From Acidobacteriota bacterium (GTDB taxonomy: Bacteria; Acidobacteriota; Vicinamibacteria; Vicinamibacterales; CAVVIG01), in assembly GCA_020850715.1 (NCBI GenBank), contig JADZED010000055.1:1-38761 (forward strand): a DNA stretch of 38,761 bases. Reading direction: 5' to 3'. Positions 22,086 to 34,650 of the stretch are shown here, piece after piece. Below the pieces are notes generated by a model, which did no database searches, was not told the origin of the DNA, and saw nothing but the letters and a program-made list of their open reading frames with translations. How positions within the stretch are numbered: position 1 is the first letter of the stretch; every line of letters begins with the position of its first letter. The translations under genes and the position numbers were made by a program.

Positions 22086-22967
22086 CTACAAGGAATCGCG
22101 CCAGCGGGCTGCCGACGCGAAGATCTCGGTCAACTGCTCGCCTTCCGGCAGGTCGCGCCGCAGGCGCTGCAACACGGAAATCAGCGCGTCGAGTGCCGGC
22201 CCGATCTCGTCGGCGTTGGTCGCGGCGACGTCCTTCCAGATATCGGCCGGGCTGCCCGCCAGCCGGGTCGTGTCGGCGAGGCCCCGGCCTGCGAGCGCGA
22301 GCCCTTCGGCGCCGACATGGCTGCCCACCACGTGCATCAGCGCGCTCGCGGCGATCTGCGGCAGGTGGCTGAGGAACGCAAGCAGGCGATCGTGCTCCGC
22401 AATCGTGAGCGTGTGCGGCTCGCCGCCGAGCGCGGTCGCGAACGCGCCCAGCTTCTCGACGGCCGCGCCCCCTGCGTCGCCGGCCGGCGTGAGCAGCCAC
22501 GGCCGCCCTTTGAACAGGTCCGGCCTCGCCCGCTCGAGCCCGCCTTTGGCGGCGCCGGCGAACGGATGCCCGCCGACGAAGGTGAAGCGCGGCGGCAGGT
22601 GCCGCGCGGCGTCGGCGATGGCCCGCTTCGAGCTGCCGGTATCGGTGACGATCGCGGCGGTCCGCACGTTCTCGTCGAGCGCGCCCAGCAGCTCGATGTT
22701 CTGCCGCACCGGCGCCGCCAGGATCACCAGGTCCGCCTCGGCGAGGACGATCAAATCGTCGGCCGCGACGTCGATCGCGTGCAGCCGCATCGCCGTCTCG
22801 AGCACGTCCTTGTTGTCGACGCCGATCACGAGCGCCTTCGGCCAGACCTGCCGGGACGCGATCGCGATCGAACCGCCGATCAGCCCGAGGCCGACGATGC
22901 CGATCCTCTCGAAGACGATCGGCGCATTCGACGGCGGCTGCCCGGGCTGGATGAAGGGCAGCGACAT
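22086..22967 (-). CDS. tyrA: Prephenate/arogenate dehydrogenase
   Basis: TyrA oxidatively decarboxylates prephenate (or arogenate) on the way to tyrosine. The 293-residue protein has a Rossmann NAD(P) site FERIGIVGLGLIGGSIAIA (19-37) and LVILAAPV. The substrate-binding VTDTGSSK and GGHPFAGAAKGGLE region follows, with the helical C-terminal domain starting at LSHLPQIAASAL. There is no fused chorismate mutase and no ACT domain, so no built-in tyrosine regulation is visible. It is the last gene of the aromatic supra-operon, 6 bases after aroF. Confidence 0.93.
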   Translation of the reverse strand: MSLPFIQPGQPPSNAPIVFERIGIVGLGLIGGSIAIASRQVWPKALVIGVDNKDVLETAMRLHAIDVAADDLIVLAEADLVILAAPVRQNIELLGALDENVRTAAIVTDTGSSKRAIADAARHLPPRFTFVGGHPFAGAAKGGLERARPDLFKGRPWLLTPAGDAGGAAVEKLGAFATALGGEPHTLTIAEHDRLLAFLSHLPQIAASALMHVVGSHVGAEGLALAGRGLADTTRLAGSPADIWKDVAATNADEIGPALDALISVLQRLRRDLPEGEQLTEIFASAARWRDSL

Positions 22968-22973
22968 CGCCGG

Positions 22974-24062
22974 TCAGCTGCCCCAGCCGCGGCGCATCAC
23001 CGGCTCGAGGCAGATACTGCGGCCGATGGCCGGCGCGATGATCCGCAGCTCGGCCATCAGGCGGTCGAACTGCGACGGGAACATCGACTGGGCTCCGTCG
23101 CTCAGCGCGTGGTCGGGGTCGCAGTGCACCTCGATGATCAGCCCGTCGGCGCCGGCCGCAACGGCGGCGCGGGCCATCGGCGCCACCATGTCGCGCCGGC
23201 CCGCGCCATGGCTCGGGTCGGCGACGATCGGCAGATGGCTCAGCTTCTTCACCACCGGGATCGCCGAGATGTCGAACGTGTTGCGCGTTGCCGTCTCGAA
23301 CGTTCTGATGCCGCGCTCGCAGAGAATCACGTCGGTGTTGCCGCCGCTCAGCACGTACTCCGCCGAGAGCAGCCACTCCTCGATCGTCGCCGAGATGCCG
23401 CGCTTGAGCAGGACGGGCTTGCGCACGTGCCCGAGCTCGCGCAGCAGCGTGAAGTTCTGCATGTTGCGCGCGCCGACCTGGAAGATGTCGCAGTACCTTC
23501 CGATCACCTCGATCTGGCTGATGTCCATCACTTCGGAGACGAGCATCAGGCTCTCGGCGGTCGCCGCCTCGCGCAGCATCTGCAGCCCTTCTTCGCCGAG
23601 CCCCTGAAAGCTGTAGGGGGAGCTGCGCGGCTTGAACGCGCCGCCCCGGAAGATCTTCGCGCCCGCCTTGCGCACGGCGGCGGCGGCCGCGCGCACCTGC
23701 GGCTCGCTCTCCGCGGAGCACGGCCCGGCCATCACGATCACCTCGTCGCCGCCGATGCGCACGTCGCCGATGGTGACGACCGTCGGTTCGGGCTTGAACG
23801 TGCGGCTGGCGAGCTTGAACGGATCCGAGATCCGAATCACCTCGTGGACGCCGTCGAGCAGTTCGATCAGCTTCGGATCCGGGTGCCCGCGGCCCACCGC
23901 GCCGAGGACGGTTCGCGTCACGCCCGTCGATCGATGGACGTCCATTCCCATCTCGACCAGCCTCGAGACCACCTGCTCGATCTGGATCTCCGAGGCCCCT
24001 TCTTCCATTACGACAACCATGGCGTCTACTGCCTCCCGCGTACTTGTCTTCATGTTGAACAT
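22974..24062 (-). CDS. aroF: 3-deoxy-7-phosphoheptulonate synthase (DAHP synthase, type I-beta with N-terminal regulatory domain)
   Basis: This enzyme condenses phosphoenolpyruvate and erythrose 4-phosphate, the entry step of the shikimate pathway. The 362-residue protein has an N-terminal ferredoxin-like domain (about 15-85, [20 protein letters not shown]), as in the Thermotoga-type enzyme, where it carries feedback control. The barrel has [67 protein letters not shown] and [12 protein letters not shown]. The ATG directly follows the TGA of the chorismate mutase gene (zero spacing). A second ATG four codons on (24051-24053) and one at MVVVMEE are also possible starts. Confidence 0.95.
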
Positions 24063-24353
24063 TCAGCCCGCGGCCGACTCCCCGTGCGCGACCCGGCGCT
24101 CCAGCGTGCGCGCCTCGTCGATGATCCGCTCGAACAGCCGGGCGATCGCCTCGGATCCGAGCGGACCCTCGACCGCGATGCCGCGGACGTGCTCGATCAC
24201 CAGCTTCTCGCGCTCCGGCTGATAGATCGGCACCTGCTGAAGCTTCTTCTGCCGTCCAATCTCGCAGACGATGCGGGCGCGTTCGTTCAGCAGCCGCACG
24301 ATCACCTCGTCCACCCGGTCGATGTTGTTCCGCAACTCTTCAAGCGTTGGCAT
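24063..24353 (-). CDS. aroQ: Chorismate mutase, AroQ type (stand-alone)
   Basis: It rearranges chorismate to prephenate, the branch towards Phe and Tyr. The 96-residue all-helical protein shows the AroQ layout: LEELRNNIDRVDEVIVRLLN (4-23), RARIVCEIGRQKK (25-37) with the substrate-binding Arg and Lys, then YQPEREKLVIEHV and RLFERIIDEARTLERR. The ATG at 24353 is the natural start and overlaps the trpA end by 14 bases; longer in-frame extensions lie inside trpA. Its direct abutment to aroF suggests the two proteins may form a complex, as known for some type I-beta DAHP synthases. Confidence 0.92.
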   Translation of the reverse strand: MPTLEELRNNIDRVDEVIVRLLNERARIVCEIGRQKKLQQVPIYQPEREKLVIEHVRGIAVEGPLGSEAIARLFERIIDEARTLERRVAHGESAAG

Positions 24354-25161
24354 GCGTGGTCCCCTTGGGCGTGGCGGCGCCCTTGAGCCAGCGAACGTAG
24401 GCCTCCACGCGATCGACGACATCCGGCGAGTGGCCGGCCTCTCCAATCAGCGACACCAGCGCGCTGCCGACCACGGCCGCATCGGCACAGGCGTTCACCT
24501 CGGCCACGTGTTCGGGCCGCGAGATGCCGAACCCGAGCGCGAGCGGCAGATCCGTGTGCGCCCGGATGCGCTGCACCATCTCCGAGGCTCCGTCCGCGAC
24601 GCGATCCCGCGCCCCGGTCACGCCAAGCCGCGAGATCCCGTAGAGGAACCCGCGGCCGAGCGCCGCCGCCTTCCGGATCCGCGCGTCGCTCGTCGTCGGG
24701 CTCAGCAGGAAGATCGTGTCGAGCCCACGCCCGGCCAGCGTCTCACGGAAGCTGTCCGCCTCTTCTATCGGCAGGTCGAGCGCCAGCACCCCGTCGACCC
24801 CGGCGCCGGCCGCGCGCCGCGCGAACTCGTCGACGCCCATACGGAGCAGAGGGTTGGCGTAGCTGAAGATCACGACGGGCGCCGACAGGCCCGGACGGAG
24901 CCGGGCGATCAGGCCGAGGGCCGCCGTCAGGTTGCTGCCCGACGCCAGGGCCCGCTCGGTCGCTCGCTGAATGACCGGACCGTCGGCGAGGGGATCGGAG
25001 AACGGCACGCCGACCTCCAGCACGTCGGCCCCTCCGCGATCGAGGGCGCCGAGGATCTCCCCCGACAGGCGGAGATCCGGGTCGCCGGCGGTCGTGAACG
25101 TCACCAGGCCAGGCTGGCCGCCGGCACGCAGGCGCGCGAAGGTTGCGGCGAGGCGGCTCAT
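24340..25161 (-). CDS. trpA: Tryptophan synthase alpha subunit
   Basis: TrpA releases indole from indole-3-glycerol phosphate. The 273-residue protein has the catalytic glutamate and aspartate region in VLEVGVPFSDPLADGPVIQ and LPLALGFGISRPEHV for phosphate binding. The ATG at 25161 gives the usual start MSRLAATFARLRA. Upstream in-frame ATGs belong to the 183-base gap after trpB and add residues unlike the family. That gap is the largest inside the supra-operon. I see only GC-rich short inverted repeats in it and no promoter. Confidence 0.95.
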   Translation of the reverse strand: MSRLAATFARLRAGGQPGLVTFTTAGDPDLRLSGEILGALDRGGADVLEVGVPFSDPLADGPVIQRATERALASGSNLTAALGLIARLRPGLSAPVVIFSYANPLLRMGVDEFARRAAGAGVDGVLALDLPIEEADSFRETLAGRGLDTIFLLSPTTSDARIRKAAALGRGFLYGISRLGVTGARDRVADGASEMVQRIRAHTDLPLALGFGISRPEHVAEVNACADAAVVGSALVSLIGEAGHSPDVVDRVEAYVRWLKGAATPKGTTHANA

Positions 25162-25344: not shown

Positions 25345-26544
25345 TTACTGGGCAATTGCGCTCTCCACACTCTGGACGTCCTTGTCGCCGCGGCCGGACA
25401 GGTTGATCAGCAGCAGCGCGTCGCGCCCGAGCTCGCGGGCCACGCTCCGCCCGTGCGCCAGCGCATGCGACGACTCGAGCGCCGGCAGAATCCCCTCGAG
25501 GCGCGCCAGCATCTGGAACGCGTCGAGCGCCGCCGCGTCGCCTGCGCAGGCGTACTCCGTGCGGCCCAGTTCACGCAGCCAGGCGTGCTCGGGGCCGACG
25601 GCCGCATAGTCGAGCCCCGCGGAGATCGAATGGGTCGCCTCGATGTTGCCGTGTTCGTCCTGCAGCACGTAGGTGCGCGTGCCCTGCAGCACGCCGGCGC
25701 TGCCGCCCGCAAAGCGGGCGGCGTGGCGCCCGCGCTCGATCCCTTCTCCGCCCGCTTCCACCCCGATGAGGCGGACCGCCGGGTCGGCGATGAAGGCGTC
25801 GAAGATCCCGATCGCGTTGCTGCCGCCGCCCACGCACGCCACGACGGCGTCGGGGAGGCGCCCGGTCTGCTCGAGGATCTGGCGGCGGGCCTCGCGGCCG
25901 ATGATCGCCTGGAATTCGCGGACCATCAACGGGTACGGATGCGGACCGAGCACCGAGCCCAGAAGGTAATAGGTATCGTCCACGCGGCCGACCCAGTCGC
26001 GCATCGCCTCGTTGATCGCATCCTTCAGCGTGCGGCTCCCGCCGTCGACGCCGACCACTTCTGCGCCGAGCAGCCGCATGCGGAACACGTTCAGCGCCTG
26101 GCGCGCCATGTCGTGCGCGCCCATGTAGACGCGGCACTCGAGACCAAGCAGCGCGCAGGCGGTCGCCGAGGCGACGCCGTGCTGGCCGGCACCGGTCTCG
26201 GCGACGATGCGGCGCTTGCCCATGCGGAGGGCGAGGAGAGCCTGGCCGAGCGCGTTGTTGATCTTGTGCGCGCCGGTGTGCGTCAGATCCTCGCGCTTCA
26301 GCAGCACGCGCGCGCCGCCCCACGCGGCGGCAAGCCGCCGCGCCTCGTACAGCGGCGTCGGCCGTCCGACGTAGTGCGTCAGCAGGCGCCCCAGTTCGGC
26401 GCCGAACGCCGCGTCGTCGCGCGCCGCGAGGTACGCGCGCTCGAGCGCCTCGATCGGCTCCACGAGCGTCTCCGGCACGTAGCGCCCGCCAAAGGCGCCG
26501 AAATAGCCGCGCGCGTCAGGATCGCGTCGCGTCAGGAACGCCAT
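25345..26544 (-). CDS. trpB: Tryptophan synthase beta subunit
   Basis: TrpB joins indole and serine using pyridoxal phosphate. The 399-residue protein starts in canonical form ([21 protein letters not shown]). The PLP lysine is K94 in [17 protein letters not shown], the catalytic Glu lies in [14 protein letters not shown], and the phosphate loop is [14 protein letters not shown]. It ends with [12 protein letters not shown]. It is a TrpB1-type protein of standard length. Its ATG at 26544 lies 29 bases inside the end of trpF, a sizeable overlap that argues for coupled translation. Confidence 0.97.
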
Positions 26545-27145
26545 GCAGGGCCTCGAAGAGGGCGCGGAGGCGCCCGTGATCCTTGATGCCGGGCGCCTGC
26601 TCGACGCCCGACGAGATGTCGATGCCAAAGGGGCGCACGCGCGCCACCGCGTCGGCGACGTTGTCCGGCTGCAACCCGCCCGCCAGGATCGCGCGGCGGC
26701 GGGCGGCGACGGCGGCCGCCGCGCGCCAGTCGATCGTCTGTCCGGTGCCGCCGCGCCGGCCGACGTCGTGCACGTCGAGCAGTAGCGTCACGTGCCCGGG
26801 CCAGGCGCCGGCTCCCCGCGGTTCGGTGCCCGCCTCGACGGCCAGCGCCTTCACCACCGGCCGGACGATGCGGGTCAGGTCGGCGACCTTCTCGTCGCCG
26901 TGGAGCTGGACGGCGCCGAGCCTGACCAGCGACGCCACACCGTTCACGTAGTCGGGCGGCTGATTCACGAACACGCCGACGCTCGTCACGAACGGCGGCA
27001 GCGCGACGGCGATCGCCCGCGCCCGGTACGGATCGATGAACCGCGGGCTGCCCGGCCAGAAGATGAAGCCGACCGCCGAGGCGCCGGCCGCGACGGCCGC
27101 CTCGGCGTCCCCGAGCCGCGTGATGCCGCAGATCTTCACGAACAC
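26516..27145 (-). CDS. trpF: Phosphoribosylanthranilate isomerase
   Basis: TrpF converts phosphoribosylanthranilate to the carboxyphenylamino-deoxyribulose phosphate. The 209-residue protein has the signature [20 protein letters not shown] (3-22), [34 protein letters not shown] and the phosphate-binding [11 protein letters not shown] with a final [10 protein letters not shown] chose the GTG at 27145 because GGGAGG lies six bases upstream. A GTG at 27139 overlaps the trpC stop as GTGA but sits too far from that site. Confidence 0.94.
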
Positions 27146-27966
27146 GCCGAACCTCCCCTGGCGCCGGTCGAATCCGGTGCGGCCGCCATCGCCAGCAGCG
27201 CCCGCAATGCGCTCCCCGGCTCCGCTGCCCGCATGAACCGCTCGCCGATGAGGAACGCCCGATAACCCTGGTCCCGAAGCGCGACCACATCGCCGGCGGT
27301 CTTCAGGCCGCTCTCGCTGACGGCGACGACCTCCTTGGGCATCCTCGCGATCAGGTCCTCCGAGGTGCGCACGTCCACGTCCAGCGTGCGCAGGTTGCGG
27401 TTGTTCACGCCGACGATCGAGGCGCCGGCGTCGATCGCGCGCTGCAGCTCCGTGCGGTCGTGCACTTCGACCAGCGCGTCGAGACCCGCGCCGGCCGCGT
27501 CGGCGACCAGCGCGGCGAGCCCGGCCTGGTCGAGCGCCGAGACGATCAAGAGGACGGCGTCGGCGCCGGCCGCCTTCGCCTCGAGGATCTGGTAGCGCGA
27601 CACGATGAAGTCCTTGCGAAGGATCGGCAGGCCGGTCGCCGTCCGGACCGACGCCAGATGGTCCAGCGATCCGTCGAAGAAGGTCGGCTCGGTCAGCACC
27701 GAGATCGCCGCGGCGCCGGCGTCGGCGTAGCCGCGGGCGATGGCGGAAGGATCGTAGCAGGGGCGCAGGACGCCTTTCGAGGGCGAGCGGCGCTTGCACT
27801 CGGCAATCACGTTGATGCGGCCGGTCCGCGCGAGCGCCGCGCGGAACCGCCCCGCCTCGCCCGCCTCTCCCGTCTGCGCCGCGAGCGCGGCCATCGGCAC
27901 GCGGGCCTCCCGCGCCTGCACGCTCCGGCGCGTACCCGCGACGATCGCGGCGAGCAGATCAGTCAA
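27136..27966 (-). CDS. trpC: Indole-3-glycerol phosphate synthase
   Basis: TrpC closes the indole ring. The 276-residue protein contains INVIAECKRRSPSKGVL with the catalytic lysine, AISVLTEPTFFDGSL, LPILRKDFIVSRYQI, LLIVSAL, LVEVHDRTEL, IVGVNNRNLRTL and VVAVSESGLKT. The start is unusual: the only in-frame codon that gives the family N-terminus (TDLLAAIVAGTRRSV) is TTG at 27966, overlapping the trpD stop by 8 bases. An eight-G run in the mRNA (27980-27973) serves as its only ribosome-site candidate. Confidence 0.93.
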   Translation of the reverse strand: MTDLLAAIVAGTRRSVQAREARVPMAALAAQTGEAGEAGRFRAALARTGRINVIAECKRRSPSKGVLRPCYDPSAIARGYADAGAAAISVLTEPTFFDGSLDHLASVRTATGLPILRKDFIVSRYQILEAKAAGADAVLLIVSALDQAGLAALVADAAGAGLDALVEVHDRTELQRAIDAGASIVGVNNRNLRTLDVDVRTSEDLIARMPKEVVAVSESGLKTAGDVVALRDQGYRAFLIGERFMRAAEPGSALRALLAMAAAPDSTGARGGSACS

Positions 27967-28984
27967 CGAATTCCCCCCCCGTCGAGATCGCCACGAGCTG
28001 CTCGAGCGTCCTGCGCGCATCGCCACGGTCGATCGCGCGCGATGCCTGCAGGATGCCCTGGTCGACCGACGGCGCCGCCCCGGCGACAAAGAGCGCCGCG
28101 CCGGCGTTCAGCAGCACCACGTCCCGCGCCGGGCCGCGCTCGCCGCCGAGGATCGCCTCGATCACCCTTGCGTTCTCGTGCGCGTCGCCGCCTTCGAGCG
28201 ACGCCAGCGCGGCCTTCGGCAGCCCGACATCGGAAGGATGCAGGTAGAACGTGTTCACCGAGCCGTCGCGGCACTCCGAGATCTTCGTGTAGCCGGTCGT
28301 CGTCAGCTCGTCGATCCCGTCGGCGCCGTGCACCACCCAGGCCCGTTCGGACCCGAGCAGCAGCAGCGCGCGGGCCATCAGTTCGGTGAGCTCCGCGCGC
28401 GGCACGCCGACCAGCTGGCGCGTCGCGCCGCCGGGATTGGTCAGCGGCCCCAGCAGGTTGAACGCCGTCCGCACGCCGAGGTCGCGCCGCGTCTGTGCCG
28501 CGTGCCGGAACGAAGGATGGAACGTCTGCGCGAAGAAGAAGCCGATGCCGGCCTCCGCCAGGCACCGCTCCACCACGGTGGGCGCAGCCGTGATGCGCAC
28601 ACCGAGCGCCTCGAACACGTCGGCGCTGCCCGACCGGCTGGAGCTCGAGCGATTGCCGTGCTTGGCGACGCGGACCCCGCAGGCGGCGACCACCAGCGCC
28701 GCGCAGCTCGAGATGTTGAAGGTGCCCGAGCGATCGCCCCCGGTGCCGCAGGTGTCGAACACGCGCTCGTATCGCCGCGCCGTCGGCACCGCGTGCGCGC
28801 GCATCGCGCGGGCGAGGCCGACGATCTCTTCCGGGCGCTCTCCCTTCATCGCCAGGCCGATCAGCAGGCCGGCGAGCTGCGCCGGCGCCGCGCGCCCTTC
28901 CATCATGGCCGACATCGCCGCGGCGGCCTCGTCGGCCGTGAGGTCCTCCTGCCGGCCGAGCTTCTCGATCAGCTCAGGAAACAT
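27959..28984 (-). CDS. trpD: Anthranilate phosphoribosyltransferase
   Basis: TrpD transfers phosphoribose from PRPP to anthranilate. The 341-residue protein has the PRPP motif FDTCGTGGDRSGTFNIS (about 76-92), GVRVAKHGNRSSSSRSGSADV, and FNLLGPLTNPG, all typical. The length is normal and the ATG lies one base after the trpG stop. Its last codons contain a C8 run on the plus strand (27973-27980) that also precedes the trpC start. Confidence 0.95.
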   Translation of the reverse strand: MFPELIEKLGRQEDLTADEAAAAMSAMMEGRAAPAQLAGLLIGLAMKGERPEEIVGLARAMRAHAVPTARRYERVFDTCGTGGDRSGTFNISSCAALVVAACGVRVAKHGNRSSSSRSGSADVFEALGVRITAAPTVVERCLAEAGIGFFFAQTFHPSFRHAAQTRRDLGVRTAFNLLGPLTNPGGATRQLVGVPRAELTELMARALLLLGSERAWVVHGADGIDELTTTGYTKISECRDGSVNTFYLHPSDVGLPKAALASLEGGDAHENARVIEAILGGERGPARDVVLLNAGAALFVAGAAPSVDQGILQASRAIDRGDARRTLEQLVAISTGGEFVD

Positions 28985-28985
28985 G

Positions 28986-29561
<576 letters not shown>

Positions 29562-29562
29562 C

Positions 29563-31035
29563 CTACAGCCCCTCGTGCGCGAGCTCGAGCGCGCGCAGCA
29601 GCGCGCCCGCCTTGGCCCGCGTCTCCTCGTATTCGGCGGTCGGATTCGAGTCGATCACGATGCCGGCGCCCGCCTGGACCAGCGCCCGGCCGCGCGACAT
29701 GATGACGGTGCGGATGGCGATGCAGAAATCCAGGTTGCCGGCGAAATCGAGGTAGCCGACCGCGCCGGCGTAGAGTCCGCGCCCCACCGGCTCCAGCGCG
29801 TTGATGATCTGCATCGCGCGCACTTTCGGCGCGCCCGAGACGGTGCCGGCCGGGAAACACGACACCAGCGCGTCGAGCCGGTCGCGATCGCCGGCCAGCC
29901 GCCCCTCGACGACCGAGGTCAGGTGCATCACGTGCGAGAAGCGTTCGAGACCCATGAACTGCGGCACCCGCACCGAGCCGAATTCGCACACGCGCCCCAC
30001 GTCGTTGCGCCCGAGATCGACGAGCATCACGTGCTCAGCGCGCTCCTTCTCGCTGCGCTTCAGTTCCTCGGCCAGCCGCATGTCCTCTTCGTCGGTCTTC
30101 CCGCGCGGCCGCGTGCCCGCGATCGGGTGGGTCTCGACGCGCGGCCCCTCGACGCGCACCAGCATCTCGGGCGACGAGCCGACCACCGACACGCCCCCCA
30201 TCCGGATGAAGTACATGTAGGGCGACGGGTTCACGTGGCGCAGCGCGCGATAGACCGTGAACGGGTCCGCCGTCACCTCCGCCTCGAACCGCTGCGAGAG
30301 CACGACCTGGTAGATGTCGCCCGCGGCGATGTGCTCCTTCGCCGCGCGCACCTGCTCCTCGAACGCCGCCTGCGTGTAGTTCGATCGCACCTCGAGCGCG
30401 CCGGCCCGCGGTCCGCGCGTGCGCGACAGGCTGCGATCGAGCTCGCGCTCGAGAAACTGGATCTTCGCGCACGCGAACTGGTAGAGCGATTCGAGATCCT
30501 CGTCGGCGGTGATGCGCGCGTTGGCGATGATGAGGATGCGGTGCTGCACGTGATCGAAGGCCAGCACCGTGTCGAACAGCATGAAGCCGGCCTGGTCGGC
30601 ACCGTCCTGTCCCGCCCCCAGATCGCCGAGCACCGGCTCGAACCACGACGAGGCGCCGTACCCGAGGTACCCGACCGCGCCGCCGGTGAAGCGCGGGAGG
30701 TCGGCGACAAACGGCGAGCGGAAATCGGCCATGAGACGGCGGAGCGTCTCGATGAACGGACGCCCGCTCAGCGTCGTCATCCCGCCGCGCTCGATCGTCG
30801 TCCGGCCGCCGTCGGCGCGCAGGATCAGGAACGGATCCTTGCCGAGAAACGAATAGCGGCCCACGTGCTCGCCGCCTTCGACGCTTTCCAGCAGGAAGGC
30901 GTAATCGGAGTGCTCGGCAATCTTCAGGAACGCCGACACCGGCGTCAGCAGGTCCGCGACGATCTCCTTGCAGACCGGCACGAAGGTGCCGCGCCGCGCC
31001 AGTTCCTTGAACGTGTCAAACGAGGTGATGTTCAT
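29563..31035 (-). CDS. trpE: Anthranilate synthase component I
   Basis: TrpE makes anthranilate from chorismate with ammonia from TrpG. The 490-residue protein carries the tryptophan-binding feedback element FLLESVEGGEHVGRYSF (about 47-63). The chorismate-binding domain follows with QVVLSQRFE, PSPYMYFIRMGG, SSPEMLVRVEG, PIAGTRPRGKTDEED, MLVDLGRNDVGRV and FPAGTVSGAPKVRAM. Feedback inhibition by Trp is thus likely at enzyme level in addition to the attenuator upstream. Its ATG at 31035 lies 20 bases inside the end of aroDE. Confidence 0.96.
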   Translation of the reverse strand: MNITSFDTFKELARRGTFVPVCKEIVADLLTPVSAFLKIAEHSDYAFLLESVEGGEHVGRYSFLGKDPFLILRADGGRTTIERGGMTTLSGRPFIETLRRLMADFRSPFVADLPRFTGGAVGYLGYGASSWFEPVLGDLGAGQDGADQAGFMLFDTVLAFDHVQHRILIIANARITADEDLESLYQFACAKIQFLERELDRSLSRTRGPRAGALEVRSNYTQAAFEEQVRAAKEHIAAGDIYQVVLSQRFEAEVTADPFTVYRALRHVNPSPYMYFIRMGGVSVVGSSPEMLVRVEGPRVETHPIAGTRPRGKTDEEDMRLAEELKRSEKERAEHVMLVDLGRNDVGRVCEFGSVRVPQFMGLERFSHVMHLTSVVEGRLAGDRDRLDALVSCFPAGTVSGAPKVRAMQIINALEPVGRGLYAGAVGYLDFAGNLDFCIAIRTVIMSRGRALVQAGAGIVIDSNPTAEYEETRAKAGALLRALELAHEGL

Positions 31036-32509
31036 CGCGCGCGAACTCCGCCAGCTGCTTCAACGCCGCTTCCCGCATGACCCCGGGCTGGGGCTTGACG
31101 CCGGTCCACCACTGGAACTGCTCCTGCGCCTGCGCCACGAGCATCTCGAGGCCGCCGACGACCTGGCACCCGGCCTGCCGCGCTTCGCGCAGCAGGCGCG
31201 TGAGCGGCGGGTTGTAGATCAGGTCGTACACACAGGCGCCGGTCAGATCCGCCGCCGGCAGCGGCGTCTCGTCCCCTTTCGGGTGCATGCCCACCGGCGT
31301 GCAGTTGACCAGCAGGTCCCAGCTCCCCGCCGCCGGCGGCCACCCGCCCGCGCTCGCCGCCGTGAGCCGCGCGACCTCCTCGGCCCGCGCACGGTCGCGC
31401 GCGTGGATCCGGACGGCCGCCCCGGCCGCGGCGAGCGCCGAGGCGACCGCGCGCGCGGCGCCCCCGGCGCCGAGCACCGCCGCGCGGGTCCGCTCGAGCG
31501 GCACGACGCCCCGGAGCGTCGACAGAAAGCCGCTGGCATCGGTGTTCGCCCCGACCCAGCGGCTCCCTTCGATCCGAATCTTATTGATCGCGCCGATCCG
31601 GCGCGCGACCGGACACGCTTCGTCGACCTGCTCGAACAGCGGCACCTTGAACGGCACGGTCACGCTGGCGCCTCTGAGCCCGGCCGCGCGCGCGAACCGG
31701 ACGAAATCGGCGGCGCTCGCCGCGGGGAGCGGCAGGTACACCGCGTCGAGCCGCGCGGCGGCGAACGCCGCGTTGTGCATGGCGGGCGAGACCGAATGGC
31801 CGATCGGCGCCCCGACGAGCCCGTAGACGCCGGTCTGCCGGCCAATCGATCTGAAACGATAGCCATCGAGCAGCGTCCGCAGATCGACCTGTCCGAGCTC
31901 CGCGAGCGCGCCCGCGGAGGTCCACGGCGCGCCGGCGCGTCCCGCGAGCACGCGGGTCGCCACCCCCGCCTCGCCCATGCCGATCAGAATCAGATTCGCG
32001 TCGCGGGCGGTCTGCGCCGCCAGATCGAGCAGCGGCACGCAGTCGCCGAGGCACGTCGTCTGCGCCGCCACCTTGACGACCTCGGCGCCGGTCGCCTGCA
32101 TCGCCCGGACCCGCTCGTTCAGATCCCGCGGCACGCCGTCGAAATCGTGGGTGGAGAGCACGATCCGCCGGCCATCCGCCTGCCCGACCAGTTCGGCGAA
32201 CCGCGCGCGCCACTCGACGTCGACGTATTCGGCGCCGAGCGCCAGCGCATCGGCGAGAATCCGCCGTCGTTCCTCTTCCGCGCCGGCGAAGCGGCCGCCT
32301 TCCCACGTCGGCCGGCAGGTCACGACGACCGGCAGCCGCCGCCCCTCCAGCGCGCCGGCCGCGCTCGGGTCCCTCACCGTGTCGAGCCGGAGCTCGACGA
32401 GATCCGCGCCCTCGACCGCGTCGCGCCGACGACGCAGCTCCGCCATCGTGGAGGCGGTCACGGTGGCGCAGACCGCGGGCGTCGGCATCGATACGACAGA
32501 CATGGGCAC
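31016..32509 (-). CDS. aroDE: Bifunctional 3-dehydroquinate dehydratase (type I)/shikimate dehydrogenase
   Basis: The fusion performs shikimate pathway steps three and four. Residues about 10-215 are a type I dehydroquinase barrel: DLVELRLDTV, the catalytic His in IVLSTHDFDGVP (H121) and the Schiff-base lysine in VVKVAAQT (K146). Residues about 227-497 are AroE: VGAPIGHSVSPAMHNAAF, VTVPFKVPLF with the catalytic lysine (K288), GANTDASGF, the NADP site AVLGAGGAARAVASAL and VNCTPVGMHP. I list the GTG at 32509, which stands 8 bases after AGAGG in the attenuator stem; an in-frame ATG at 32503 is equally plausible. It is the first enzyme gene behind the trp-type leader. Confidence 0.95.
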   Translation of the reverse strand: MPMSVVSMPTPAVCATVTASTMAELRRRRDAVEGADLVELRLDTVRDPSAAGALEGRRLPVVVTCRPTWEGGRFAGAEEERRRILADALALGAEYVDVEWRARFAELVGQADGRRIVLSTHDFDGVPRDLNERVRAMQATGAEVVKVAAQTTCLGDCVPLLDLAAQTARDANLILIGMGEAGVATRVLAGRAGAPWTSAGALAELGQVDLRTLLDGYRFRSIGRQTGVYGLVGAPIGHSVSPAMHNAAFAAARLDAVYLPLPAASAADFVRFARAAGLRGASVTVPFKVPLFEQVDEACPVARRIGAINKIRIEGSRWVGANTDASGFLSTLRGVVPLERTRAAVLGAGGAARAVASALAAAGAAVRIHARDRARAEEVARLTAASAGGWPPAAGSWDLLVNCTPVGMHPKGDETPLPAADLTGACVYDLIYNPPLTRLLREARQAGCQVVGGLEMLVAQAQEQFQWWTGVKPQPGVMREAALKQLAEFARDEHHLV

Positions 32510-32547
32510 AAAAAAAGCCTCTTCAACCGGCTGGGCTGAAGAGGCTT
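32510..32547 (-). terminator. Intrinsic terminator of the aromatic operon attenuator
   Basis: In the minus-strand RNA an 11-bp perfect stem forms between AAGCCTCTTCA (32547-32537) and TGAAGAGGCTT (32525-32515). After one A/C mismatch the loop can add two C-G pairs. A run of seven U (32516-32510) follows the 3' arm at once. It ends one base before the aroDE GTG codon, so terminated RNA would contain no structural gene. Confidence 0.92.
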
Positions 32548-32574
32548 GGTTTCACTCCGTTTCGCGGTGGCAGG

Positions 32575-32667
32575 TCAGGCCAAGGCGGATGCCTCTTCAA
32601 TCGGGCTCCAATACCACCAGGACGCAAACCGGCCGGGGCCGGCCGGTGGGACGTCCAGACGATTCAC
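32575..32667 (-). CDS. trpL: Aromatic-operon leader peptide (30 aa)
   Basis: This short ORF begins at a GTG (32667) and ends with TGA (32577-32575). Residues 14-20 read F-A-S-W-W-Y-W, that is UUU, GCG, UCC, UGG, UGG, UAU, UGG, so it holds three Trp codons, one Tyr and one Phe within seven codons. Trp codons lie at 32619-32617, 32616-32614 and 32610-32608. The first part is an ordinary Pro/Gly/Arg-rich stretch. No good ribosome site precedes the GTG; an in-frame CTG or GTG further upstream could be the true start without changing the aromatic codons. The peptide itself is presumably disposable, and its translation is the sensor. Confidence 0.82.
   Translation of the reverse strand: MNRLDVPPAGPGRFASWWYWSPIEEASALA
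32628..32647 (-). other. Hairpin just before the aromatic codons of the leader
   Basis: ACCGGCC and GGCCGGT (32647-32641 and 32634-32628 in RNA order) form a 7-bp stem over a 6-base loop inside the leader coding region. It ends nine bases before the first Trp codon. It could act as a polymerase pause or slow the approaching ribosome, helping the two stay in step. It could also be only a result of the GC-rich Pro/Gly codons. Confidence 0.4.
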
Positions 32668-32711
32668 AGCCGGCGAGCTCAGGGGCGGATGACCAGACAC
32701 TGGAAGACCGG

Positions 32712-32741
32712 ACGATACCAGAGCAGGTCGTCGGCTGTCAA
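32712..32741 (-). promoter_or_regulatory. Sigma-70 promoter of the aromatic supra-operon
   Basis: On the minus strand a perfect TTGACA (32741-32736) is followed after 18 bases by TATCGT (32717-32712), matching four of six -10 positions. Initiation near 32705 would place the leader GTG about 38 bases into the RNA, a leader spacing like that of the E. coli trp leader. I see no obvious TrpR-like operator. Confidence 0.7.
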
Positions 32742-32760
32742 CATGAATGCCCATTTCTCC

Positions 32761-32790
32761 TTGACCAGCAACGACTTCGTCTCGTATAAC
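32761..32790 (+). promoter_or_regulatory. Sigma-70 promoter of the S55-peptidase gene
   Basis: TTGACC (32761-32766) and TATAAC (32785-32790) are spaced by 18 bases, one mismatch from consensus each. The predicted start near 32797 leaves only about 9 bases before the ATG at 32806, so the mRNA is nearly leaderless. The -35 box lies 19 bases from that of the divergent aromatic operon promoter. Confidence 0.7.
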
Positions 32791-32805
32791 GGGATCGGTC
32801 CCCTC

Positions 32806-34650
32806 ATGATGCTCCGCCGCCTCCTCGTCGCCCTGCTGGTTGCAGCGCCCGCGCTGGCCGGCGTGCAGGCGGATGCCCCTCCGATGCCGGTGTCGGACAT
32901 CCGGCCGGGCATGGTCGGCATCGGCCGCACGGTCTTCAGCGGGACCAAGGTCGAGGAGTTCGAGGCCCACATCATCGGCGTGCTCGACAACGTCATCGGC
33001 CCCCGCCGCAGTCTGATTCTCGCGAAGCTCGAAGGCGGGCCGCTCGCCAGCACCGGCGTCATCGCCGGGATGAGCGGCAGTCCGGTGTACGTCGACGGCA
33101 GGCTGATCGGCGCCGTCTCCTACGCGCTCGGCTCGTTCTCGAAGGAGCCGATCGCCGGCATCACACCAATCGGGGAGATGACCGACGCGACGATGATGAA
33201 CGGCGTGCGGCCGGCCGGCGCGCAGGTGCACGTCGACTTCCCGCTCACCCGCGACGGCCTGACCGCCGCGTTCCGTCAGGCGCTCGACTGGAACCGCCCG
33301 TTCGCGGCGCGCGCCTCGGACGCGCGCCTCACCGGCGCCCAGCAGGTGGCCGGCCTCGCGGATGGACGGATCGGGACGCTGCTGCGCCCGATTGCGACGC
33401 CGCTGGCGATGGGAGGCTTCGAACCGCGCGTCGCCGACACGCTCGGCGCCGCGTTCAGCGACCAGGGCTTCATCCCGACCGGCGGCGGCGAACCTGCGCG
33501 CGGCCAGATGCCCTTCGACGGCCCGTTGAAGCCGGGAGACGCGATCGGCGTCGAGTTCGTCAACGGGGATCTGCAGCTGGGCGGCACCGGCACGGTGACC
33601 CACATCGACGGCAACCGCGTGTACGCGTTCGGCCATCCGATGTACAACCTCGGGCCGACCGAGTTCCCGATGACGCGGGCGTACGTCTACACCGTTCTCC
33701 CGAGCCTCTTCTCCTCGATCAAGCTCTCGAGCACCGGCGAGATCATCGGCACGTTCCTGCAGGATCGCGCGACCGCCATTGCCGGCGAGCTCGGCCGGGG
33801 GCCGCGGATGATCCCGATCGCGCTCACGCTCGAATCCGATCGCGCGCCGAAGCGCACGTTCCATTTCAACGTGGTGAACGATCAGCTCTTCGGTCCGCTC
33901 ATGAGCTATGCCAGCATCCTGAACACGTTCAGCTCGTACGAGCGGCAGTTCGGCGCCGCCACCTTCGCCGTCCGCGGCGAGGTGCGGCTGAAGCACCACG
34001 ACGCCATCAGCTTCGACAACGTCTTCGCCGGCGACCAGCCTTCCACCGGCGCGGCGACCTACGTCGTGGGACCGATGGCGGCCCTGATGGGCAACGAGTA
34101 CGAGAAGGTCGATCTCGAGGCCATCGACCTCACGATCACCGCGACCGAACAGCCGAAGACGGCAACGCTCGAACGCGTATGGCTGGACGACCCGCGGCCG
34201 CGCGCCGGGCGCACCGTACCGCTGAAGGTGCTGCTCCGCACGTACCGCGGCGACGACGTGCTCCGCACGCTGCCGATCGAGATCCCGGCCAACGCGAGCG
34301 GCGCGCTGTCGGTGCTCGTGTCCGACGGTCCCCGGCTGAGCGCCGCCGAGTCGCGCGAGGCGCGCAGCCCGCAGCAGCCGCGCAGCGTGCCGCAGATGAT
34401 CAGACAGTTGAACAACGCGCGCCGCAACAACGCGCTCTACGTCAAGCTGCTCGGCTCCGACGCCGGCGCCGTCGTCAACGGCGAGCTCCTCTCGTCGCTG
34501 CCGCCGTCGGTGCTGTCGGTGCTCGAGGCCGATCGCAACGGCGGCAGCTTCAACGCCCTCTACAACGCGACGCTGGGTGAATGGGAGATCGCCACCGATT
34601 CGGCGGTGAGCGGCACGCGCACGCTCAGCATCCAGGTGTCACCCCGCTGA
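32806..34650 (+). CDS. Exported SpoIVB-type (S55 family) peptidase-domain protein
   Basis: The 614-residue protein starts with a signal peptide (MLRRLLVALLVAAPALAGVQA). The N-terminal region, about 28-400, resembles the SpoIVB serine peptidase domain: a short DIRPGMVGIGRTVFSGTKVEEF segment, GVIAGMSGSPVYVDGRLIGAV with the predicted nucleophile S92, and YAFGHPMYNLGPTEFPM. The S55 family contains the sporulation signalling protease SpoIVB. Here the context is Gram-negative-like and no sporulation gene is near, so the substrate is unknown. Residues 400-614 form a separate, unassigned region. The double ATG at 32806 and 32809 follows a strong promoter closely. A secreted propeller gene lies 41 bases downstream. 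Confidence 0.8.
   Translation: MMLRRLLVALLVAAPALAGVQADAPPMPVSDIRPGMVGIGRTVFSGTKVEEFEAHIIGVLDNVIGPRRSLILAKLEGGPLASTGVIAGMSGSPVYVDGRLIGAVSYALGSFSKEPIAGITPIGEMTDATMMNGVRPAGAQVHVDFPLTRDGLTAAFRQALDWNRPFAARASDARLTGAQQVAGLADGRIGTLLRPIATPLAMGGFEPRVADTLGAAFSDQGFIPTGGGEPARGQMPFDGPLKPGDAIGVEFVNGDLQLGGTGTVTHIDGNRVYAFGHPMYNLGPTEFPMTRAYVYTVLPSLFSSIKLSSTGEIIGTFLQDRATAIAGELGRGPRMIPIALTLESDRAPKRTFHFNVVNDQLFGPLMSYASILNTFSSYERQFGAATFAVRGEVRLKHHDAISFDNVFAGDQPSTGAATYVVGPMAALMGNEYEKVDLEAIDLTITATEQPKTATLERVWLDDPRPRAGRTVPLKVLLRTYRGDDVLRTLPIEIPANASGALSVLVSDGPRLSAAESREARSPQQPRSVPQMIRQLNNARRNNALYVKLLGSDAGAVVNGELLSSLPPSVLSVLEADRNGGSFNALYNATLGEWEIATDSAVSGTRTLSIQVSPR

What the first reader, a model, noticed from the sequence alone, without database searches (positions are those of the whole stretch)
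32510..32741. Complete trp-type attenuator whose leader peptide carries Phe, Tyr and three Trp codons (F-A-S-W-W-Y-W)
Seen: a TTGACA promoter, a 30-codon leader ORF with UUU GCG UCC UGG UGG UAU UGG, a TTGAAGAGGC copy at 32600-32591, a complementary AAGCCTCTTCA arm at 32547-32537, a second TTGAAGAGGC copy at 32526-32517 and U7 just before aroDE. Known: ribosome stalling at Trp codons frees an antiterminator arm in the enteric trp operon; such attenuators are best described in Proteobacteria. Inferred: because the operon makes all three aromatic amino acids and the leader contains all three, this may be a multi-amino-acid sensor. Stalling at Phe or at the first two Trp codons should favour antitermination. 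Stalling at the last Trp, whose codon ends 7 bases before the antiterminator arm, may not, so the response could be graded.
Basis: partly seen in the sequence, partly recalled or inferred. Interest (0 to 1): 0.93.

Follow-up and report, generated by a model that had tools for sequence, protein, structure and literature searches.

The report
Attenuator sensing three aromatic amino acids
In front of an eleven-gene operon for aromatic amino acids, one order of Acidobacteria keeps a short leader reading frame packed with tryptophan, tyrosine and phenylalanine codons plus two competing RNA hairpins, and a ribosome short of any of the three is predicted to switch the operon on.

Summary
In detail: promoter, leader ORF, copy-complement-copy (9 exact bases; 0 of 2000 shuffles) and U7 lie where stated. 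A covariance model finds the element in 145 of 162 genomes of the order (24 of the 145 trained it). In a 100-sequence alignment both alternative helices are kept with paired changes. In 115 usable leaders, F/Y/W fill 62-85% of the five codon slots ending about 9 nt before the antiterminator arm, then 24%, 2% and 1% of the next three; predicted antitermination falls at the same codons. Trp and Tyr share that stretch in 106 of 115 leaders; all three aromatics precede the arm in 92 of 115. Leader Phe and Tyr codons favour the U-ending form. Best reading: a ribosome-mediated attenuator likely reading Trp and Tyr, probably Phe, over aroDE-trpEGDCFBA-aroQ-DAHPS-tyrA. No conserved 1:2 protector was found, so it is predicted ON unless a ribosome runs through. 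The leader likely starts near the promoter (GTG 32700, 41 codons), not at 32667. The graded last-Trp idea depends on footprint size. No experiment was possible. New variant of a known kind.

The parts
32736..32741 (-). -35 box TTGACA of the leader promoter
   Evidence: TTGAC with a -10 of form xAxxxT in 94 of the 96 leaders (window included) in which TTGAC and a start codon were both assigned
32712..32717 (-). likely -10 box TATCGT (18-nt spacer); predicted transcription start near 32705
   Evidence: Read by eye; predicted 5' UTR over 96 leaders median 6 nt
32575..32700 (-). leader ORF, 41 codons from GTG 32700, ...GRFASWWYWSPIEEASALA stop (32577-32575)
   Evidence: start inferred from relatives; SD-like motif in only 3 of 108 leaders with a start
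32608..32628 (-). control codons Phe-Ala-Ser-Trp-Trp-Tyr-Trp (slots -8 to -2 before region 2)
   Evidence: aromatic cluster profile over 115 leaders
32591..32600 (-). region 2, TTGAAGAGGC, inside the leader ORF (codons ATT GAA GAG GCA); antiterminator 5' arm
32534..32547 (-). region 3, AAGCCTCTTCAGCC; shared arm that pairs with region 2 or region 4
32515..32528 (-). region 4, GGTTGAAGAGGCTT; terminator 3' arm
32510..32516 (-). U7 tract of the intrinsic terminator
31016..32509 (-). aroDE, fused 3-dehydroquinate dehydratase / shikimate dehydrogenase
   Evidence: PF01487 and PF08501 above cut-off
29563..31035 (-). trpE
   Evidence: TIGR00564 above cut-off
28986..29561 (-). trpG
   Evidence: TIGR00566 above cut-off
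27959..28984 (-). trpD
   Evidence: TIGR01245 above cut-off
27136..27960 (-). trpC (start approximate)
   Evidence: NF001377 above cut-off
26516..27145 (-). trpF (start approximate)
   Evidence: NF002298 above cut-off
25345..26553 (-). trpB (start approximate)
   Evidence: TIGR00263 above cut-off
24340..25161 (-). trpA (start approximate)
   Evidence: TIGR00262 above cut-off
24063..24350 (-). chorismate mutase, AroQ type
   Evidence: PF01817 above cut-off
22974..24062 (-). DAHP synthase
   Evidence: TIGR01361 above cut-off
22086..22967 (-). tyrA, prephenate dehydrogenase; last gene of the apparent operon
   Evidence: PF02153 above cut-off

Best explanation
The leader at 32741-32510 (minus strand) is likely a ribosome-mediated transcription attenuator that reads the supply of charged Trp-, Tyr- and probably Phe-tRNA and sets transcription of the eleven-gene aromatic operon behind it. 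Shown by the sequence and by comparison: a short leader ORF with an aromatic codon cluster, region 2 lying inside that ORF, and region 3 able to pair with region 2 (antiterminator) or region 4 (terminator with U7), both pairings kept with paired changes across the order. Inferred: when all three amino acids are plentiful a ribosome would run through the cluster, cover region 2 while region 3 emerges, and leave 3:4 to form, so transcription would stop near 32510. When any of the clustered codons is slow, the ribosome would stop with its front edge at or before region 2, 2:3 would form first, and RNA polymerase would read on. Because no protector of region 2 was found to be conserved, an untranslated leader, or a ribosome stalled further upstream (for example at Phe), would also tend to read through: default ON, switched off by a passing ribosome.
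For: (anatomy; chance excluded for the triple); 145 of 162 genomes of the order (154 of 193 of the class) have the element at E<=0.01; the window and 23 relatives that trained the model are among them, leaving 121 of 138 untrained. (100-sequence alignment; the model did not contain the antiterminator): antiterminator 92.0% of cells paired against 40-55% when slid, 37 double-change cells against 13.2 in shuffles; terminator 97.2%, 101 against 25.3; region 2 better than chance (p<=0.05) in 105 of 133; in those, last aromatic codon to region 2 is median 9 nt (IQR 7-10); aromatic share per codon slot -7 to 0 is 0.62, 0.85, 0.80, 0.83, 0.72, 0.24, 0.02, 0.01; mean predicted antiterminator probability at -4 to 0 is 1.00, 0.97, 0.62, 0.10, 0.00 with a 13-nt footprint. 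Family f13 leaders read WFWF(I/L)YF (4) or WWWFFYF (2). U-ending Phe 100 of 195 against 491 of 1724 in the downstream gene, Tyr 104 of 177 against 197 of 762; the full eleven-gene set in this order in 13 of 25 named loci; 10 contigs end inside it, L025 lacks two genes, and L018 has no trp genes and no attenuator.
Against: No RNA or expression data. For the antiterminator, the number of pairs with any double change (5) and of pair types (14) is not above shuffles (4.3, reached by 220 of 500; 12.5, reached by 67 of 500). 28 of 133 leaders have no region 2 better than p 0.05, and 9 of 142 loci gave no usable leader ORF; those were not settled by eye. 17 of 162 genomes of the order gave no match. 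Phe is in the stall stretch in only 37 of 115 leaders, and Ser (2.7x) exceeds Phe (2.2x) upstream of it. P values are not corrected for kinship; Phe codon choice is up in 10 of 14 families, down in 3, equal in 1. In the fold test a ribosome over region 2 gives zero by construction, and the correlation of cluster end with region 2 start (r 0.82) is partly built in, because aromatic codons were counted only up to region 2. Without a protector hairpin, coupling of ribosome and polymerase must come from something not identified here.
Confidence: 0.66

Rival explanations
1. It is a Trp-only attenuator. Trp codons do the sensing, and Tyr and Phe are passengers or are kept for RNA pairing or codon-context reasons.
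For: Trp is the commonest residue in four of the five cluster slots. In Corynebacterium glutamicum the AroR leader contains Phe-Tyr-Phe, yet the operon answers Phe and not Tyr supply (PMC11802643, passages), so a control-like codon can be silent. The named locus without trp genes (L018) also lacks the attenuator.
Against: Tyr occurs with Trp in the stall stretch in 106 of 115 leaders, in changing orders (WWYW, WRWYW, WYWYW, YWWWY, WWWYY), written with both TAT and TAC. Tyr codons lean to the U-ending form in 12 of 13 families with Tyr, which RNA pairing does not obviously explain. Family f13 has Phe and Tyr right at the permissive edge.
Confidence: 0.26
2. The hairpins are a plain terminator and a repeat; the operon is governed elsewhere, or region 2 is held by a protein or a metabolite rather than by a ribosome.
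For: No in vivo data. The terminator alone would be a normal end for a transcription unit.
Against: A promoter lies just upstream, the reading frame is kept, and the aromatic cluster ends a ribosome-sized gap before region 2. No Rfam family reached its gathering score in the window, so no known T-box or riboswitch.
Confidence: 0.05
3. An ordinary four-segment enteric trp attenuator with a 1:2 protector and pause hairpin, so that an untranslated leader terminates.
For: The window's minimum-energy fold pairs the Trp codons with sequence around and behind the stop codon, similar complements can be seen in some relatives, and pairing of region 2 with the upstream leader is slightly above chance (12%).
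Against: Over 115 leaders, pairing of region 2 with the upstream leader beats shuffles at p<=0.05 in 12%, Trp run with spacer in 5% (3 of 21 in family f1), region 2 with spacer in 3%; chance is 5%. Free RNA is predicted to form the antiterminator (median 0.91; above 0.5 in 64%).
Confidence: 0.03

Closest known systems
Enteric trp operon attenuator (trpL; Rfam Trp_leader; name and four-segment layout recalled)
   Same: Leader ORF with Trp codons, antiterminator and terminator sharing one arm, U tract, in front of trp genes
   Different: Tyr and Phe codons in and before the control stretch; region 2 inside the leader ORF, before its stop; no conserved 1:2 hairpin found; no Rfam match; covers shikimate, DAHP synthase, chorismate mutase and tyrA genes too
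Corynebacterium glutamicum aroR leader before aroF (Neshat 2014, not read; as told in PMC11802643, passages)
   Same: Mixed aromatic codons (Phe-Tyr-Phe) before an operon with DAHP synthase; ribosome stalling
   Different: Trp residues are not mentioned for it and its operon is separate from trpEGDCFBA; reported to answer Phe, not Tyr
trp attenuators of Corynebacterium and Streptomyces (PMC1262725, passages; PMC8079986, passages) and of Sinorhizobium meliloti (PMC7298713, passages)
   Same: Tandem Trp codons, complementary triple, and leaderless trpL in S. meliloti and S. lividans
   Different: Described there as Trp-dependent; other phyla
ilvGMEDA and thr attenuators of enterics (recalled)
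   Same: One leader reading several amino acids
   Different: Branched-chain or Thr/Ile, not aromatic

Membership tests
Ribosome-mediated transcription attenuator of amino-acid operons | Promoter and short ORF before the structural genes | tested here: met
   translation itself not measured
Ribosome-mediated transcription attenuator of amino-acid operons | Control codons for the operon's own products | tested here: met
   In the stretch before region 2: Trp with Tyr in 106, Trp with Phe but no Tyr in 6, Trp alone in 2, none in 1 of 115 leaders; operon
Ribosome-mediated transcription attenuator of amino-acid operons | Mutually exclusive antiterminator and terminator with U tract | tested here: met
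   (prediction and comparison)
Ribosome-mediated transcription attenuator of amino-acid operons | Control codons placed so that a stalled ribosome leaves the antiterminator arm free | tested here: met
   (prediction)
Ribosome-mediated transcription attenuator of amino-acid operons | Terminated leader RNA that disappears on starvation | not testable with these tools
   Needs RNA data
Enteric trp attenuator (four segments) | 1:2 protector/pause hairpin | tested here: not met
   no conserved pairing of region 2 upstream (12% at p<=0.05) or of the Trp run with the spacer (5%)
Enteric trp attenuator (four segments) | Match to the Rfam family at its gathering score | tested here: not met
   0 matches in the window
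T-box leader | Rfam T-box match at gathering score | tested here: not met
   0 matches in the window
TRAP-regulated trp leader | Series of NAG triplet repeats | not tested
   No call made

The most novel reading that the evidence does not exclude
A whole order of Acidobacteria runs its aromatic super-operon through one leader that acts as an OR gate for Trp, Tyr and Phe shortage. The control codons are packed into the last codons before the antiterminator arm is covered, use slow U-ending Phe and Tyr codons, and the switch is ON unless a ribosome on a near-leaderless mRNA drives through it.
Probability: 0.5. Interest if true: 0.74.

Novelty: new variant of a known kind. Interest (0 to 1): 0.62.

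Why it matters
[quoted passage not shown] The natural variety of leaders (WWYW, YWWWY, WFWFIYF and others) is a ready-made test set for which codon positions an attenuator can read, and for whether attenuation works without a protector hairpin. My ten paper searches (open-licence PMC only, some lists cut) showed, in the rows listed, no report of a trp attenuator in Acidobacteria or of a three-aromatic leader. A comparative survey of bacterial attenuators (Lopatovskaya 2010, seen only in a reference list) was not available to me and could change that.

Tried and rejected
Rfam scan: nothing. Protector hairpins: three pairings tested, none clearly conserved; alignment folds of three subsets gave different weak helices upstream of the terminator. 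Extension beyond the order: TrpE was found in 30 of 36 genomes searched. I printed sequence upstream of the match for 27 of the 30 loci held (L259-L261 left out). In six (L267, L271-L275) the match starts inside the gene or at a contig end, so they tell nothing. In the other 21 there was no T run of five or more and no aromatic leader before a terminator; two held a chance aromatic run (L249, L268). An attenuator further upstream in those operons is not excluded. Of eight weak model matches outside the order that I read (one search listed more), one (G427) is a real look-alike and seven look like ordinary terminators. The model found nothing at E<=0.1 in 57 other AroDE loci: L018, L021 and the 55 loci L026-L080, mostly titled Planctomycetes. 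Matches on the opposite strand of the same terminator were set aside as palindromes. Idea that Phe enrichment alone proves Phe sensing: rejected, since Ser is more enriched. My first trpF query was in a wrong frame; one search repeated it. Rows dropped: 142 loci (window included) fetched of 145 matching genomes of the order (G097, G135, G172 not fetched); 9 without a usable leader ORF; 18 more without a region 2 of at least 7 bases at p<=0.10, leaving 115; start-dependent counts use 96 or 108.

Full report
WHAT IS THERE. All coordinates are on the minus strand of the window. The finding's elements are present as written: TTGACA 32741-32736, the Phe-Ala-Ser-Trp-Trp-Tyr-Trp codons 32628-32608, TTGAAGAGGC 32600-32591, AAGCCTCTTCAGCC 32547-32534, a second TTGAAGAGGC inside 32528-32515, and T7 32516-32510, directly before aroDE (GTG 32509). 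The exact complement shared by the three segments is 9 bases, plus one G-U. In 2000 dinucleotide shuffles of the 232-nt region, none held a copy-complement-copy of 8 bases or more. The terminator alone folds at -23.6 kcal/mol (z -6.75), the antiterminator segment at -23.1 (z -1.60). The pattern TTGAAGAGGCTTTTTT, one mismatch allowed, occurs once in the own genome.

THE OPERON. Family searches name the genes behind it as aroDE, trpE, trpG, trpD, trpC, trpF, trpB, trpA, an AroQ chorismate mutase, DAHP synthase and prephenate dehydrogenase. The one prephenate dehydratase found in the genome, the Phe-only step, lies on another contig. Among the 25 named loci L001-L025 (with trpF repeated in the right frame), 13 show the whole set from aroDE to tyrA in this order; L025 has aroDE, the trp genes and tyrA but no detected chorismate mutase or DAHP synthase; ten end before the operon does; L018 has aroDE followed by tyrA without trp genes.

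CONSERVATION. Of those 25 loci, L021 has almost no upstream sequence. Of the other 24, 23 carry the same leader design and L018 does not. The 23 plus the window gave alignment A1 and covariance model R1 with the terminator pairs only. In the class search, 154 of 193 genomes match at E<=0.01: 145 of 162 in the same order and 9 of 31 in other orders, the latter weak (best 2.9e-6). All 24 training rows recur exactly among the 142 fetched loci, so 121 of 138 genomes not used for training match. In a sample of 396 genomes of the phylum, 79 match; the strongest outside the order is G427 at 9.6e-9.

BOTH PAIRINGS ARE KEPT. In a 100-sequence model alignment (100 of the 142 loci were given) the antiterminator, which the model did not contain, forms standard pairs in 92.0% of cells against 40-55% when one side is slid, with 37 double-change cells against 13.2 in shuffles; the number of pairs with any double change, 5 of 10, is no more than shuffles give. 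The terminator: 97.2% and 101 against 25.3 (this alignment was fitted to the terminator). Per locus, the best region 2 beats shuffles at p<=0.05 in 105 of 133.

THE CODON CLUSTER SITS WHERE A RIBOSOME MUST STOP. From the 142 loci (30, window included, and 112), 133 gave a usable leader and 115 a clear region 2. Counting codons back from region 2, the share of Phe, Tyr or Trp is 0.62, 0.85, 0.80, 0.83 and 0.72 at slots -7 to -3, then 0.24, 0.02 and 0.01. Folding the RNA that a stalled ribosome leaves free (13 nt from the first base of the A-site codon masked) gives mean antiterminator probabilities of 1.00, 0.97, 0.62, 0.10 and 0.00 at slots -4 to 0; a 10- or 15-nt mask moves the edge by up to about one codon. 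The gap from last aromatic codon to region 2 is median 9 nt (IQR 7-10, n 105). Both positions move together (r 0.82), but that is partly built in, because aromatic codons were counted only up to region 2.

TRP ONLY, OR THREE AMINO ACIDS? In the stretch 5-27 nt before region 2, 75 of 115 leaders have Trp and Tyr, 31 all three, 6 Trp and Phe, 2 Trp alone, 1 none; from start to region 2, 92 have all three, 18 Trp and Tyr, 4 Trp and Phe, 1 none. The order of residues changes while the aromatic character stays: WWYW, WRWYW, WYWYW, YWWWY, WWWYY, and in family f13 WFWF(I/L)YF and WWWFFYF. Phe upstream of the cluster is 0.069 of codons against 0.031 in the downstream protein and 0.028 and 0.030 in the other two frames, and 67 of 96 leaders have at least one against 38.6 expected; but Ser is enriched more (2.7 against 2.2 times), and Pro and Thr somewhat. 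Phe and Tyr codons of leaders lean to the U-ending form: 100 of 195 against 491 of 1724, and 104 of 177 against 197 of 762 in the downstream gene, while Asp and Ser (AGY) go the other way and His, Cys and Asn move less (no correction for kinship). By family, Tyr is up in 12 of 13; Phe is up in 10 of 14, down in 3, equal in 1. I read this as selection for slow codons; that is inference, by analogy with rare Leu codons in the leu leader (PMC1183508, passages).

HOW IT MOST LIKELY WORKS. Shown: the parts, their spacing, their conservation. Inferred: with ample amino acids a ribosome runs on, covers region 2 as region 3 emerges, and the terminator forms; a shortage of Trp, Tyr or probably Phe holds it at the edge, region 2 pairs with region 3 and the operon is read. 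Three tests for a pairing that would hide region 2 or occupy the Trp run found little (12%, 5% and 3% of 115 leaders at p<=0.05), and free RNA is predicted to antiterminate (median 0.91, above 0.5 in 64%). So the design looks default ON, unlike the enteric trp leader as I recall it. Predicted 5' UTRs are short (median 6 nt, n 96) and an SD-like motif stands before only 3 of 108 leaders; leaderless trpL is known in S. meliloti and S. lividans. For the window's last Trp, a graded response hinges on the footprint (1.00, 0.94, 0.43).

COMPARISON. Mechanistically it belongs with ribosome-mediated attenuators. It is not an enteric trp leader in the strict sense (no conserved 1:2 hairpin found, no Rfam match). 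The closest functional relative I met is the C. glutamicum aroR leader with Phe-Tyr-Phe, reported to answer Phe but not Tyr (PMC11802643, passages), which is a warning against reading function from codons alone. One genome of another class (G427) has the same layout with different arms: a leader with ...VFAASWWWYRR... (translated by eye), arms CCGGAGGGC / GCCCTCCGG / CCGGAGGGC and U6, before an ORF that looks like a TrpB-type tryptophan synthase (by eye), so the design is not tied to one arm sequence.

Noticed in passing
Own genome G000 contig 59 (L276, L300) and L277-L299: pheA (prephenate dehydratase) heads an apparent pheA-ilvB-ilvN-ilvC operon in the own genome (ilv genes named by eye). 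In 18 of 24 family loci a different terminator (GGCCATCATCC...GGTGATGGCC, U tract) lies before pheA; where I read it by eye there is an upstream copy and, in two leaders translated by eye (G047, G069), a Val-rich ORF: possibly a second attenuator, of branched-chain type, over a Phe gene.
   Followed up: partly
G427 contig 137 (L301): In another class of the phylum a WWWY leader with its own copy-complement-copy arms and U tract precedes a TrpB-like ORF (by eye).
   Followed up: partly
32509-32528: Region 4 (GAAGAGG) lies at Shine-Dalgarno distance from aroDE GTG 32509; in 55 of 111 loci the gap from the last (A/G)GG of region 4 to the first in-frame start found is 4-14 nt. The terminator may also hide the aroDE ribosome site.
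   Followed up: partly
L018 (titled Vicinamibacterales bacterium): aroDE is followed by tyrA with no trp genes, and the attenuator is missing.
   Followed up: partly
L025: Operon without detected chorismate mutase or DAHP synthase; its leader has Trp and Tyr but no Phe. One case only.
   Followed up: no
32689-34650, plus strand: Divergent ORF with a SpoIVB peptidase S55 domain match (PF05580, 38.3 bits); as listed, its 5' end overlaps the leader promoter region.
   Followed up: no
L019: Record titled Acidimicrobiia carries a typical leader and operon start of this order; probably a mislabelled MAG.
   Followed up: no
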